Below are positions 830 through 60,300 of a stretch of DNA of 64,000 nucleotides, piece after piece. How positions within the stretch are numbered: position 1 is the stretch's first letter; the number at the start of each line of letters is the position of its first letter. The stretch lies in NCBI GenBank assembly GCA_030867875.1, contig JAOWCC010001589.1:85583537-85647536 (forward strand), read 5' to 3'. The notes below the pieces were generated by a model. The model ran no database searches, was not told the origin of the DNA, and was given only the letters and a program-made list of their open reading frames with translations. The position numbers were made by a program, and so were the translations under genes. This DNA is from Actinernus sp. WN-2022. Its lineage: Eukaryota; Cnidaria; Anthozoa; Actiniaria; Actinernidae.

Positions 830-28919
<28,090 letters not shown>

Positions 28920-54100: not shown

Positions 54101-54431
54101 CGAGGGGTAGTGAGTTATGTCCCACCTGTAAGCAAACTAGTTGAAGTCTTTCAAACACCCAACCACACTAGTATTTTGTGTTGTGCTTCATTAAACCAAT
54201 CAAGCTGCAGCTGATAGCATATTCCCTTTAGTTTTAGTGCTATGAAAATACATCAGACAAGAAAGAAAATTGTTGTAGAAGACTGTGGGGATTTGGTCCC
54301 ATTTGGCTGCCCCAGGGGGTGGGGGTTTTCATACATTAGGGACTTTCTCAAATATAAGTGCATTATTTCATCAAATTCATGAATAACCTGATGGTCCATC
54401 AGCCGTCCCTAGGCCTTCTGGCTGGTATGTT

Positions 54432-54535
54432 GTCTGAGTGGGTTAATGGGATCCCTGTGGTTTACAATGGCTTGTGACGTCACAGTTGGTCGGTGACGTC
54501 ACAAGCCATTAGGGATCCCATTAACCCACTCAGAC
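54432..54535. repeat. 104-bp hairpin near the 3' end of the OPR-like gene
   Basis: GTCTGAGTGGGTTAATGGGA and TCCCATTAACCCACTCAGAC are perfect inverses, with inner AATGGCTTGTGACGTCAC/GTGACGTCACAAGCCATT also pairing. Part of the arm (GGGATCCCTGTGGTTTA) recurs at about 57049-57065 in the divergent promoter region. Confidence 0.92.
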
Positions 54536-54692
54536 AAAATACACTGAAGGCAAAATTACAGTCTGTGACCAAAGAGGATCATGGCCAATGTACAGAGTCA
54601 AGTGTGAAGGGAGTAATATTAAGCATAACTCCAAGCATACGTATGCTGTTACATGTAAGTACATGTAGAACTACTGATTCCTTCAATTGCCT

Positions 54693-56834
54693 TTAGTTAG
54701 GTGTTGAAAGTTCTTGAGAATTCTCTACTGTTTCTGTTGTAACTACATGTACTTTGCTTGTGTCTCTCCTAAGCAGTTCTTCACTGGCCTTTCTGAATAA
54801 CTCAACAGCAGGAATCCCTTGAGTATTGAATGACCACAGTACATTGTTCAGGATATTGGTGTGCATCTCAGAGAAGCCCCTCTTTAAGATTTCTTTTTCA
54901 ATCACATTAAAAACTTCTGGAGCTCGTGACATTGTAACTGCATATGACCTCAAAACTGTGGTTAGTAGAAGTATGTCAAATGCAGAAATGTCACGCTTCA
55001 TAAATTCTTCCTTGAAAGAGTCAAACAACCTTGGAGCTGGTATGTTCGCTCTTTCAAACAACCACAGGAACTGCACTAGCTGCTTGTTGGTCAACCCAGA
55101 GAGATTACGGGTAAGAATTTCTTCTTCGAATGAGTTGAATAATCCAGTGTTGTACTCTGAAGCTTTCATGAAGGACCAAAGAACCATTACTAGCTCCTGG
55201 ATAGTATGACTTTTCAGACTTATAAATGCATATTGCTGGGCTGTCTTACTGAACAGATCTGGAGACCTAACACCAAGTTTGGCAAATGACCAAACAAAGT
55301 GTGCTAGAGCTACATAATCATAGTTGTCAAATGGCCGTGAAAGGATTTCTCCCTCTAGCTTCTTAAACATCTCACCATGAGGTTCAGCTAGCTTAGCAAA
55401 GGCCCACAGGGTTTTGGCAATCCTTCGGGAGGCCATCTCAGAAATATCATGATGGCAGAGACCATCGCCAACAAGTTTGAACAAATCAGGAGCCTTGATG
55501 TTGACCTTTGCAAAAGACCATGCAAATAAAACCAATTGTCCAGGTTCATAGCATGTGACATCACGAGAAATAATATCTTCCTTGAGTGTCCCAAACAAGT
55601 GATGGTCTGCAATCTCAGCTTCAGCAAATGACAGCAAGATGGTGGCCAGATCACGATTCTCCATGGTTGAGGTATCTCTTGCTAAGACTGCTCTTGAGAT
55701 GAAGCTGAACAGTTCTTTTGCACGGAACCCTAACTTGGATAGGTACTTTAGGAACAATGCAAAGTGGCGAACCCCATACTTACCAGGATCATCACTCAAC
55801 ACAGCTTCCGCTATGGCTCTTAGGAGAATATCACACCTGAAGTGCATCTTGGAGGAAACACGCAAAATTATCTCTAGTTCATATGGCTCAAATGCACAAA
55901 GATTCCTTTGGGAAAGCTCCTCTGCAAAGCAAATGAAAAGTTCTTTGGGCCTTAAGGATGTTTCTCCAAAGGCCCATAGAAGCTGAACGAATTGCTCTCT
56001 TGTGAAAGTGGAAGTTTTTCTACGAAGAATCTCTTGCTCTGCAAGCTTAAACAAGCATTCAGAGAGTTCTCCTAACTTCGCAAAAGACCAGAAAACAATG
56101 GCTAATTCACTATTGCTGAATGCTGATAAGCCACGGTTAAGAATTTCATCTCTCATTAACTGGCTTACATTGCTTGCATCAACAACATCTTTTGCCCTTC
56201 CCAGCCCAGATAAGAGCATGGCAATTTCTTTGGTATTCAAATTGTTGAACCCTCTTTGTATGACTTCGTTTAGACACACGTCCATATCTAAATTAATGTT
56301 ACGAAGGTTCACATCACTAATTAACAGCAATGCCAGAGCATGGATGATGTTCGTAAGGCCACGATGATCAACATCATGAACTCCTTTCATGACTTCTCTA
56401 ATAAGCCGTCCCATGCTGCTATTCAGCTGGCGATCAGTTTTAACAATCTGCTGTTCCCTTCTCTTGTTCTTCATGATCTTGGCCATATTATAGAGCACGG
56501 TTACTTTGTTATGTTGGTTCATTTTACATGATTCAAAAAGCTCCAACAGTTTGTCAACACTGTTCTCGCTACGAATCTGGCTGTTCAATTGAATTTGATG
56601 TCCTCTGAACCTATTATTGTCTCCTTCCCATTGGGTTCTCCTTTTCCACGAAGTCTTTATAGGATTTCTATGTCCATCCTCTCTGTTCCTAAAAGTACTC
56701 AAGGCTACTGCTGGAAAGCTACGGAGCTGGAGTTTTGCACGCAGTACCAGTGGTACATCGGGTGGTAGATGCTGCTGCAGACATGCCCTGGCGAAATTAA
56801 ACCTCAAAAACCGACTTGACCTAGATATAAACAT
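54693..56834 (-). CDS. Intronless OPR-like helical-repeat protein (713 aa), probable mitochondrial RNA-binding factor
   Basis: A single uninterrupted frame from ATG to TAA. Residues 1-50 are rich in Arg and Ser and free of acid until about 30, as in a mitochondrial presequence. From residue 249 to 667 a 38-residue repeat runs without a single insertion: the hallmark position falls at 249, 287, 325, 363, 401, 439, 477, 515, 553, 591, 629 and 667, usually as WSFAKLG or WAFAKL, followed by LF about 12 residues later and a charged EEIL-R helix. A likely extra repeat is at about 211. A 38-residue period is that of octotricopeptide repeats, helical-hairpin arrays that bind organellar RNA; animal FASTK proteins carry related repeats. 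No C-terminal RAP domain is visible, only a short tail. The RNA-binding role is inference. Confidence 0.88.
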   Translation of the reverse strand: MFISRSSRFLRFNFARACLQQHLPPDVPLVLRAKLQLRSFPAVALSTFRNREDGHRNPIKTSWKRRTQWEGDNNRFRGHQIQLNSQIRSENSVDKLLELFESCKMNQHNKVTVLYNMAKIMKNKRREQQIVKTDRQLNSSMGRLIREVMKGVHDVDHRGLTNIIHALALLLISDVNLRNINLDMDVCLNEVIQRGFNNLNTKEIAMLLSGLGRAKDVVDASNVSQLMRDEILNRGLSAFSNSELAIVFWSFAKLGELSECLFKLAEQEILRRKTSTFTREQFVQLLWAFGETSLRPKELFICFAEELSQRNLCAFEPYELEIILRVSSKMHFRCDILLRAIAEAVLSDDPGKYGVRHFALFLKYLSKLGFRAKELFSFISRAVLARDTSTMENRDLATILLSFAEAEIADHHLFGTLKEDIISRDVTCYEPGQLVLFAWSFAKVNIKAPDLFKLVGDGLCHHDISEMASRRIAKTLWAFAKLAEPHGEMFKKLEGEILSRPFDNYDYVALAHFVWSFAKLGVRSPDLFSKTAQQYAFISLKSHTIQELVMVLWSFMKASEYNTGLFNSFEEEILTRNLSGLTNKQLVQFLWLFERANIPAPRLFDSFKEEFMKRDISAFDILLLTTVLRSYAVTMSRAPEVFNVIEKEILKRGFSEMHTNILNNVLWSFNTQGIPAVELFRKASEELLRRDTSKVHVVTTETVENSQELSTPN

Positions 56835-57147
56835 GACTTTTAGCTAACAGCATCTTCCCTGGTCTCTTGGTTACAATTATCTCTATCTTAATAACTATAT
56901 TCTTAAAGGCTAGGCAACGCAAGTATATGAATGTTCATCTTCTCCACTTTCCACATAACAACACGTGTCTTCGACACCGCCATCTTGTAGCACAACCTCG
57001 TCCCCAGTGTCTTCTCTGACCGAGAAGGGTTGCACGTTTAATGATATGGGATCCCTGTGGTTTATTACCCAGGAGCCTATGCAATGAAAACACAGGGTTA
57101 CCACCATAGGAATGATGAAAAAGTCAAGATTGTGAATCCTCTGCATC
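56835..57147. promoter_or_regulatory. Shared divergent promoter of the OPR-like and peptidase genes
   Basis: Only 313 bp separate the two start codons, which point away from each other. The minus strand reads AAGATGGCGG (plus 56977-56986), an exact match to the recalled YY1 consensus common in TATA-less promoters. Both transcripts presumably start in this interval. Confidence 0.6.
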
Positions 57148-57387: not shown

Positions 57388-60300
57388 GTAAAATGATAAT
57401 TAGTGTACCCGACGTACAAGACTGTATGTAATTTAATACTCAGAGAATAAGACTAAGCAGCAATTATTTTGAATTTTAATTTCGTTTTGTTGCCTGAACA
57501 CCATCCAACTTTCCCTGCTAGCAGAGGTCTCTCTCTGTCTTGGTAAAATGGAAGGCGAGGGAGAGACTTCTGCCGACATCCAACGCTTTTTCTGTCGCGC
57601 ATGCGTGAAGTTTCCTTGGCAACAAGTGACGCGATCTCACGTGTACTTATGAGCGCACTGTAACAAACAACTGACGCGTACAACTATTTCCGGTTAAACG
57701 CGTTTTCGAAACTGGTTTGACTCGTCCATGACTGTGGACGGCAAGCGTCGGATGTCGGCAGAGGTCTCTCCCTTGCCTTCCATTTTACCAAGACAGAGAG
57801 AGACCTCTGCTAGCAGGGAACATCCAACTGTCTCTGCTTCCCAACTCTCTAAAATAAGGAAACGTTTTTATTCAAACAATAAAATTTCACTTTAATAAGC
57901 AACAACAAGTTTATGTTTACAACAACTGCTCAGTTTCTCGTTTCTGATTGGTTTATTGCCATTGGAAATGAGAGGACGTACCACCGATTGCGTCAATTTG
58001 CTCACACCACGGATTACGTGATAGCACATGCTATATAGAATCACTTTTCCCCTACTTCATAGTTTTCAAAGGCTGCTTTAAATAATCCCCTTGACTATTT
58101 CTCGTTTGTTGTTGTACAATAAATTTGATAGTTTAATTCCTGTGGTATGTCCTCTTATTTGTCACATTTTTCGTCATCTCATGGTCACTAGTGTAGACCT
58201 GTACCGGGGATTCAGGCACTGATGTTAATTTTAATTATATATATAATCAGTTCCATATATATCCAACAAGAACTAGCCTGTACACAGACCTCCGTAATCC
58301 CTTCAAAGGAAGGAAAAGGAGGTCTGTACTATGGATGAGTTAATCGTGTTCTAGGTCACGTGGATAGTTACAGGAATGTTGTAACCAGTCGCTGATTGGC
58401 TGGTGCCTCCTAGCGGGTGCTGATTGGCTTAGCGGTTATGTTGACCTTAATTAGTTCTGGCTCCGTGGGAAAATCCGAGCTCAATTGCCCTATATCATTA
58501 TGACGTCATATCAAAACAATCTATTGTTTAAACGCTAAGGATCACGGTCGTGGGAGGGGGACAATTAAAACAGCAACAACACAAAAAAAATCGCTATCAA
58601 ATGCATTTTGTAGAACGTAGAATAGTGGTAATAGCCACCAAATAGGTAAATATTGTGGGATAAACATTGATACAGCTGATATCTGGAAACCAGACAATTC
58701 GAAGTTAAATTTTCCTCAGCAGAGCAGATTTAGTTCAAAATTCTATTGTTCAAGTCGATTCTGTCCCCCTCATAAACAAGCCATGACGTCATAATGATAT
58801 AGGGTAATTCACTCTGGTTTGGAATTGTGTTAAGATGAATTGCTATGTCATTTTGTGTCCTGTGCTCGGTTAATATTGAGAAAAAAATTATAAGAATATC
58901 TGTTCATGTAACTCAGTACTGCATTTCAAGTCTGGGAAGAAATTATTTCTCTCGAATTTCAAGTGAAATGTAAATCAACATAAATGCCTCAACATAAATG
59001 CAGAAAGTGCCTAGGAAGTTTGAAAGAATTTGCAGGGAACAAACGAAATTCTTCTTCAGATATCGTCTAGTTGATCATCTTCAAAACAAAAAGAAAGTCC
59101 ATGTTCAAGAGCTCTTTTTACAAAGCGAATGGCTGTGGGAGACGATCAACCAGAAGCAATATCAATAGCCTCGGCGGTCAGGCGAGTTGCTACGAGCGCG
59201 ACTTCTCAAACCTCGAGTTCACGTGGTTCTCAAACTCTCGAATTCATCCAATCTTCCCCTTTCTCGAGGAAAGAAAGATAACGGAGGTCTGTGTATAGGC
59301 TATTGAAGAAGGGAATTTATTTTATTTCCCCCGCTTCCCAGCACGTCCTCCCTCTTTGTCTCTTGCATTGCCGTTAACAATAGGAAATGAACAATCTGAA
59401 TTATACAATGTGTACCATCTAGTGTTTCTCGGCCAATGGCAATCAAGATGTAATTTATGCAAAATTATGTCGGAACACGATTAACGACAGTATAGCACAC
59501 TGACATCCCTTCCCGAGTTTTGAGGGGGGATGGACGGCTGAACACAGGCTAACAAGAACTAGTATTTGTGGCAGTATATATTGGACTGAATATCTAATCA
59601 CAGTACTTCTGTACTGGAGTCCTGGGGGGTACTTCATGGTGAAAATTAAGGTAGGGGATGCTCGTTGGAAAAGCTGGAAAAATACCCTGAACAATACTTT
59701 ACCTAGAAAGTGCACTAATATAACTCTAAAAATACCTTAATGGCCTCAAAATACCCTCAAAATACCAAGTATGGATTACCAATTATTAACAAAGTAATAA
59801 GCCCAGTGATACACGACTAACACAAGGCCATTTCAGCAATTTTGTCAAATTTTCTAACTACCGTAATTAACATTCCAGCTGTGTTCAGTTTATTTGAGTG
59901 GATATTGTTTTTAGAGCCTGTTTCTTAAAAAAATCCCAGATTTTAGAACATTTGGTTTTTCCCTAGACGATTCGCTAAAAAGATTTTGAGTCGCCAAATT
60001 CAACCCCTAAAAAATACAATGAGCACCCCTGACCCCCTGGACTGGAGTATGCAGAGGCCATCACATGCTATAATTATATTCAGTGCACAGGATTCCATCA
60101 GGCTAGCAGCCTTTATTAATGAATTAGATTTAGCATAGAGTTTAAAAATTAACTGGTTATCGAGTTAATAATTCATGTAATTTATACAGTCACTTGGTCA
60201 TATCATATCATAGCACTTTGTGTTTGGGTCTATAAAGCTGGTAAACAAATTATTAATCTGGTCCATAACTTACAATATTGCCAAAGTTGCAGTCATTTAA

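What the first reader, a model, noticed from the sequence alone, without database searches (positions are those of the whole stretch)
54693..56834. Animal gene with twelve gap-free 38-residue OPR-type repeats and no introns
The repeat hallmark recurs at exactly 38-residue spacing from residue 249 to 667 with no insertion. This strict period is typical of octotricopeptide (OPR) proteins of green algae and is unusual for an animal, where FASTK-family relatives carry irregular versions plus a RAP domain. The gene is a single exon while its neighbours are heavily split, which fits retroposition or acquisition by transfer. It could be an animal mitochondrial RNA factor with a modular RNA-recognition array.
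Basis: partly seen in the sequence, partly recalled or inferred. Interest (0 to 1): 0.75.

Follow-up and report, generated by a model that had tools for sequence, protein, structure and literature searches.

The report
Animal mitochondrial RNA-binding repeat gene family
A coral-like or anemone-like animal carries an intron-free gene for a spiral repeat protein of a type best known from algae and protists, probably sent to mitochondria to grip specific RNAs, and the same genome holds at least three more genes of this kind.

Summary
Window 54693-56834 (minus) is one open frame of 713 residues. Twelve 38-residue units follow each other without a gap, and an AlphaFold2 model puts both helices of all 12 units at exactly 38-residue spacing. 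Repeats, fold and profile matches place it with octotricopeptide (OPR) type mitochondrial proteins of algae and protists (RESC6, mL115, mL123). It has no RAP domain and no FASTK-family match above cutoff. A recent transfer is unlikely: Nematostella has an ortholog (69% identity over 64% of the protein), while the one named dinoflagellate hit is 22% identical. It is not a lone retrocopy either: the same 1.39-Gb genome holds three more distinct, single-frame genes of this kind with presequence-like N-termini. Four repeat positions (2, 3, 6, 38) vary between units yet are 28/28 identical between the window protein and Nematostella. In a second, unnamed group of relatives the same positions are among the least conserved, as expected of recognition residues (partly post hoc). 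Best reading: a RAP-less mitochondrial RNA-binding array that protects, positions or helps splice specific transcripts. Hexacoral mitochondria have two tRNA genes and group I introns, so such a factor would have work to do. RNA binding, target, import, transcription and spread across animals remain untested.

The parts
54693..56834 (-). OPR-type gene, single coding frame, 713 aa plus stop
   Evidence: 100% match, no stops
56685..56834 (-). residues 1-50: presequence-like N-terminus (8 K/R, 1 D/E); no confident structure
   Evidence: composition and low pLDDT only; no trained predictor was run
56115..56609 (-). residues 76-240: N-terminal helical region with the VTVLY segment and two degenerate hairpins
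54747..56114 (-). residues 241-696: twelve gap-free 38-residue OPR-type units (start at residue 241+38k)
54696..54746 (-). residues 697-713: disordered C-terminal tail, no RAP domain
54446..54464 (+). 19-bp direct repeat, copy on the 3' side of the gene; lies inside a hairpin element
57046..57064 (+). 19-bp direct repeat, copy on the 5' side of the gene
54425..54542 (.). hairpin (MITE-like) element downstream of the gene: arms 32 nt at 97% and 18 nt at 100%

Best explanation
The gene encodes a nuclear-encoded OPR-type alpha-solenoid, probably imported into mitochondria, belonging to a small, old, intron-free gene family of this cnidarian-like animal. Twelve regular hairpins plus more degenerate N-terminal ones form a superhelix. 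Residues at positions 2, 3, 6 and 38 of each unit (start of the first helix and the residue before it) are proposed to read one base per unit, over a tract of about 12 nucleotides of one mitochondrial transcript. Without a RAP nuclease-like domain it would act as a cap, guide or chaperone: protecting an RNA end, setting a processing site, or helping fold and splice a transcript such as the nad5 group I intron. Shown: ORF, period, predicted fold, homology, paralogs, conservation pattern. Inferred: import, RNA binding, one base per unit, target, role.
Against: No RNA-binding, localisation or expression data, and no AATAAA or ATTAAA signal within 492 bases downstream of the stop. The fold is also used by structural mitochondrial proteins (mL115, NDUTT15, ASA3), and lower Foldseek rows are unrelated helical repeats such as spliceosomal SF3b and AP complexes. 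My first prediction, that inner-face positions 2,3,5,6,9,10,13 would be more conserved in the second group too, failed (40/56 vs 208/248; 31/56 vs 161/248). The reversed reading was made after seeing that, and the four positions were picked post hoc in the first pair. The three pairs of the second group share ancestry; their hosts, and whether they are orthologs or paralogs, are unknown, and no dN/dS was possible. Summed charge over the 12 units at positions 2, 3, 6 and 38 is +3, -3, +1 and -5, so the proposed reading positions are not basic; nearby positions 9 and 13 are +3 and +6.
Confidence: 0.6

Rival explanations
1. It is a structural scaffold, such as a lineage-specific subunit of the mitoribosome or a respiratory or RNA-processing complex, with no sequence-specific RNA reading; the solenoid binds proteins.
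For: The best sequence and fold matches are subunits of large assemblies: RESC6, mL115, mL123, NDUTT15 and ASA3. A FASTK review describes RESC6 as a scaffold that also contacts RNA (PMC12687428 section 10, part 1). Charge at the four proposed reading positions sums to -4 over 12 units.
Against: Positions that vary between units are identical between the two orthologs and fast in the other group; that fits recognition of a changing linear ligand better than a fixed scaffold, though a protein partner could do the same. Four genes of different length (713, 837, 458 and 417 aa) in one genome fit a set of specificity factors.
Confidence: 0.22
2. It is a FASTK-family protein that lost its RAP domain.
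For: Weak FAST_1 match, E 4.6e-4; a review says FASTK N-terminal domains resemble RESC6 (PMC12687428); FASTK and OPR arrays may be distantly related.
Against: FAST_1 scores 20.5 bits against a cutoff of 27.4, and no FAST_2 or RAP match was listed. The Trebouxia, Symbiodinium and two unnamed proteins score 51 to 127 bits on FAST_1, so that match is not FASTK-specific. Profile A2 and the repeat profile A4 list no FASTK structure at E<=1.
Confidence: 0.08
3. The gene came by horizontal transfer from an algal or dinoflagellate symbiont.
For: Strict 38-residue arrays are best known from green algae; there is a Symbiodinium relative (P0005).
Against: 22% identity to Symbiodinium and 21% to Trebouxia against 69% to Nematostella. 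In a 16-row tree the window and Nematostella rows form one clade (100/100), sister to four unnamed ENA rows (100/99), apart from the named algae and dinoflagellate (midpoint root, long branches, ten rows of deviating composition, Nematostella row 41% filled, uneven sampling). A very old transfer is not excluded.
Confidence: 0.05
4. This copy is a recent retroposed duplicate of an intron-bearing parent.
For: Single coding exon; a perfect 19-bp direct repeat flanks it and occurs nowhere else in the window, even at up to 3 mismatches.
Against: No intron-split parent and no closer copy of the window gene among the 8 matches listed in the own genome (the next is 27% identical, a lower bound). No A-run of 8 or more within 492 bases downstream. 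The other three family genes are single-frame too. One copy of the repeat sits inside a hairpin element, so dispersal of that element may explain it.
Confidence: 0.05

Closest known systems
OPR (octotricopeptide repeat) proteins of green algae, e.g. CCS2 with LWALAR-type repeats, and the NCL cluster
   Same: 38-residue repeats in tandem, a LWSFAK-type first helix like the LWALAR of CCS2, organelle factors; NCL proteins are a paralog set with altered targets in mutants (PMC8635915 and PMC5541062 passages)
   Different: Animal host, no plastid, no PPPEW motif, no RAP domain, gap-free array
RESC6 of the trypanosome RNA-editing substrate-binding complex (PDB 8fn4, 8fni)
   Same: Closest solved structure by sequence profile (6.8e-15) and Foldseek (1.6e-11)
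   Different: Shorter, part of an editing complex unknown in animals (recalled); 16-18% identity in the structural alignments
mL115 (Chlamydomonas) and mL123 (Polytomella) mitoribosome proteins
   Different: Ribosome subunits
HPR (heptatricopeptide) proteins of alveolates
   Same: Related repeats; one study counts HPR within OPR (PMC13126933 passage)
   Different: 37-residue period; the Symbiodinium relative P0005 peaks at 37, 74 and 111
Animal FASTK family
   Same: Helical-repeat N-terminal domain and mitochondrial RNA role by review (PMC12687428)
   Different: Has FAST_1, FAST_2 and RAP; none reached the cutoff here

Membership tests
OPR | Tandem 38-residue repeat | tested here: met
   Lags 38/76/114 far above 500 shuffles; 12 units, helix spacing 38 in 11 of 11 steps
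OPR | Two antiparallel helices per unit forming an alpha-solenoid | tested here: met
   AlphaFold2 mean pLDDT 78.7, pTM 0.63; ten-residue means 81-95 within the repeats except 67-79 over residues 531-600; prediction only
OPR | Sequence homology to known OPR proteins | tested here: met
   Trebouxia protein P0006 with 38-residue period and RAP domain, phmmer 1.8e-17; unit HMM 1.4e-13 against it; mL115 by profile 1.4e-7
OPR | PPPEW motif (many but not all OPRs; CCS2 has LWALAR instead, PMC5541062) | tested here: not met
   Not in the 12 units; the LWSFAK type resembles LWALAR. Not universal, so not disqualifying
OPR | Organelle targeting | tested here: inconclusive
   First 50 residues: 8 K/R, 1 D/E, 6 S/T; amphipathicity only at the 84th percentile of the protein's own windows; no trained predictor available
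OPR | Sequence-specific binding of organelle RNA | not testable with these tools
   Only the position pattern bears on it
HPR | 37-residue period | tested here: not met
   The period is 38
FASTK | C-terminal RAP domain | tested here: not met
   No RAP match listed at E<=1; the protein ends 17 residues after unit 12
FASTK | FAST_1 and FAST_2 above gathering cutoff | tested here: not met
   FAST_1 20.5 of 27.4 bits; no FAST_2 listed
Retrogene | Intron-bearing parent, poly(A) remnant, target-site duplication | tested here: inconclusive
   No parent found, no A-run, but a perfect 19-bp flanking repeat
Recent horizontal transfer from a symbiont | High identity to, or nesting within, a donor group | tested here: not met
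   22% to Symbiodinium against 69% to Nematostella; tree

The most novel reading that the evidence does not exclude
Cnidarians, and perhaps other early-branching animals, keep an OPR family of mitochondrial RNA factors with a readable repeat code (positions 2, 3, 6 and 38). These would do the sequence-specific RNA end-definition and nad5 group I splicing that tRNA punctuation cannot do in a mitochondrial genome with only two tRNA genes. One branch of the family (P0012-P0014) is changing its recognition residues fast, as restorer-type PPR (recalled) and NCL-type OPR genes do.
Probability: 0.25. Interest if true: 0.85.

Novelty: new variant of a known kind. Interest (0 to 1): 0.62.

Why it matters
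Sequence-specific organelle RNA factors built as OPR arrays are discussed for algae and protists; in animals the role is attributed to FASTK and a few PPR proteins (the PPR part is recalled). How cnidarian mitochondrial mRNAs are cut out where tRNA punctuation is missing is described as unexplained in an octocoral (PMC5474008), and hexacorals add a nad5 intron that holds other genes (PMC10167242). A small, conserved, intron-free gene family with candidate recognition residues makes this directly testable in Nematostella, which has an ortholog. It also bears on how old OPR proteins are in eukaryotes.

Tried and rejected
Horizontal transfer, recent retroposition and FASTK membership were considered and are argued under the rivals. 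Prokaryotic, viral or plasmid origin: no relative by tblastn in genome contigs, viral contigs or plasmids. The contig scans rest on one or two short peptide patterns each, so these are weak negatives.

Prediction that failed: inner-face positions more conserved in the second group. Reported, and replaced by the post hoc test.

NCBIfam gave weak matches to a Xanthomonas-type effector family (XopAD, E 0.003, 14.8 of 2000 bits) and to an uncharacterised family (16.3 of 4299 bits). Judged to be generic helical-repeat similarity and not followed.

FASTKD4 is not among the structural matches shown; that absence is not evidence of a different fold.

L002 against L003 (a second contig) for polymorphism: 0 differences in 4533 bases, so no selection test was possible.

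Whether the own genome has RAP/FASTK genes, P0013-type genes or a mitochondrial contig could not be learned, because those searches did not complete.

Paper coverage: PMC13126933, outline, sections 3 and 19 (part 1), passages. PMC12687428, abstract/outline and section 10 (part 1). PMC8190603, PMC8635915, PMC5541062 and PMC10167242, passages only. PMC5474008, abstract and passages. PMC12691811, search listing and an empty term search. Others, search listings only. 'Not in print' rests on (octotricopeptide + Nematostella: 0; octotricopeptide + coral: 0; octotricopeptide + metazoa: 9 listed, by title none on animal OPRs; octatricopeptide + animals: 5 listed; RAP domain + FASTK + cnidaria: 1 review, not read) and term searches, in an open-licence library only.

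Full report
The gene. The window's next longest ATG/GTG/TTG frame is 152 aa, and 30 mononucleotide shuffles gave stop-free runs of at most 192 codons.

The repeats. Self-similarity at lags 38, 76 and 114 stands far above 500 shuffles. Twelve units start at residues 241, 279... 659. Their consensus is xxxLxxxLWSFAKxxxxxxxLFxxxxEExLxRDxSxxx. W stands at position 9 in 8 of 12 units. AlphaFold2 on six sequences gave mean pLDDT 78.7 and pTM 0.63. Almost all of residues 1-77 and 692-713 fell below pLDDT 50; the rest is all helix, with both helices of every unit at 38-residue spacing. Confidence dips to 67-79 over residues 531-600.

Homologs. One search gave 10 proteins at E<=0.001: Nematostella P0002 (69% identity, 64% coverage), Symbiodinium P0005, Trebouxia P0006, Symbiochloris P0010 and six unnamed. 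Search 2, on residues 62-330, gave Nematostella and three unnamed ENA proteins (P0012-P0014). Search 3, by profile, gave 10 proteins at E<=1e-5, two of them new. In searches only about 8000 candidates were scored, so other animals may have been missed. A 16-row tree puts the window and Nematostella rows together (100/100), then the four ENA rows (100/99), then P0003 (95/95), apart from the named algae and dinoflagellate (midpoint root, ten rows of deviating composition). The P0002 record is precomputed as PF26188, whose name I did not see and which the local Pfam scan did not list.

A gene family in the same genome. The own genome (1.39 Gb, 1772 contigs) matched the window protein in 8 rows. 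These resolve to four distinct genes: the window gene; C635:56716476-56718986 (837 aa, P0017), with an identical second copy on a 42-kb contig (0 differences in 4533 bases); C635 near 80.454 Mb (458 aa, P0018); and C1380 near 45.296 Mb (417 aa, P0019). Each is a single open frame; for P0017 I chose the ATG, since the frame is open somewhat further upstream. Further exons beyond the frames were not excluded. Querying with P0017 returned the same four plus a 64-residue partial duplicate just upstream of it, 78% identical. The tool calls its counts lower bounds. The first 50 residues of the four have 8, 8, 9 and 11 K/R, 1, 0, 0 and 2 D/E, and 6, 11, 12 and 1 S/T, so P0019 is the least presequence-like. 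P0017 also models as a long solenoid (pLDDT 77.5), with RESC and mitoribosomal chains on top. So 'no introns' is a property of the family found here, not of one retrocopy.

Candidate recognition residues. Between the window protein and Nematostella, seven units can be compared (266 cells, 76% identical). Ten of 38 positions are identical in all seven units; shuffling within units gave 5.5 on average, p 0.016. Four of the 15 positions that vary most between units (2, 3, 6, 38) are identical in 28 of 28 cells, against 175 of 238 elsewhere. I then predicted the wider inner face would be conserved in P0012-P0014; it was not. There positions 2, 3, 6 and 38 are instead among the least conserved: 13/32 vs 235/272 (Fisher 3.7e-8; random four-position sets as low 0.0001), 11/32 vs 181/272 (7.3e-4; 0.0040) and 8/32 vs 183/272 (7.7e-6; 0.0005). 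Other positions, such as 13, 15, 18, 20, 23 and 35, are also low in one or more pairs. Frozen in one lineage and fast in the other is what recognition residues do, and it recalls the PPR code, where two early residues and a late one of each repeat matter (PMC8635915 passage, in another numbering). The test is post hoc in part, the three pairs are not independent, and the four positions are not basic (summed charges +3, -3, +1, -5 over 12 units).

How it most likely works. The protein is imported into mitochondria and lays about 12 nucleotides of a specific transcript along the solenoid. Lacking RAP, it protects or exposes a site rather than cutting. [quoted passage not shown] In an octocoral most mRNAs are polycistronic, and the excision of units not explained by tRNA-Met or rRNA processing remains to be explained (PMC5474008 abstract and passages). 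That the host is a hexacoral is inferred from the Nematostella ortholog; its own mtDNA was not examined. No AATAAA or ATTAAA signal lies within 492 bases downstream of the stop, and transcription is untested.

Literature. A 2026 study counts HPR within OPR and says the OPR motif is not in domain databases; a term search of its text shows no mention of metazoa, animals, cnidaria, corals or Nematostella. My searches found no paper on OPR proteins in cnidarians, within an open-licence library.

Verdict. The class reading (OPR-type) is supported by homology and predicted fold; the mitochondrial RNA role is inferred from the relatives and not shown. The transfer and retroposition ideas are not supported.

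Noticed in passing
P0005 (Symbiodinium sp. CCMP2456), residues about 1100-1175: An OPR-type array followed by a C-terminal stretch with sub-threshold deaminase matches (Toxin-deaminase E 0.0027, APOBEC_N 0.011) and, by eye, a HPE ... PCVSC zinc-type motif: a possible OPR-deaminase, of interest for dinoflagellate organelle RNA editing.
   Followed up: no
P0016 (EukProt), 1098 aa: OPR-type repeats in one protein with Pfam domains PF01596 and PF13578, methyltransferases by recall.
   Followed up: no
L011:6215-6446: A broken partial duplicate (about 64 plus 20 residues, 78% and 95% identical) just upstream of the P0017 gene, a sign of recent local duplication in the family.
   Followed up: partly
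G000:C1424:5674-8184: A second copy of the P0017 gene, identical over the 4533 bases compared, on a 42-kb contig: uncollapsed haplotype or very recent duplication.
   Followed up: partly
window 54425-54542, 54446-54464 and 57046-57064: A MITE-like hairpin next to the gene and a perfect 19-bp repeat 2600 bp apart bracketing it.
   Followed up: partly
window 57511-57820: Inverted repeat with 78-nt arms, 96% complementary, 154 nt apart; probably another hairpin transposon.
   Followed up: no
window 17409-17828 (-): Open frame of a tandem repeat of about 25 residues ([29 protein letters not shown]); probably a minisatellite.
   Followed up: no
window 15746-16265 (-): Two frames matching Methyltransf_28 (E 6.1e-11, and 3.3e-4 below cutoff); NDUFAF7-like by recall: a split gene for a mitochondrial protein about 38 kb away.
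   Followed up: partly
window 10718-11041 (+): Reverse transcriptase fragment (RVT_1, E 1.1e-5, below cutoff), a LINE remnant.
   Followed up: no
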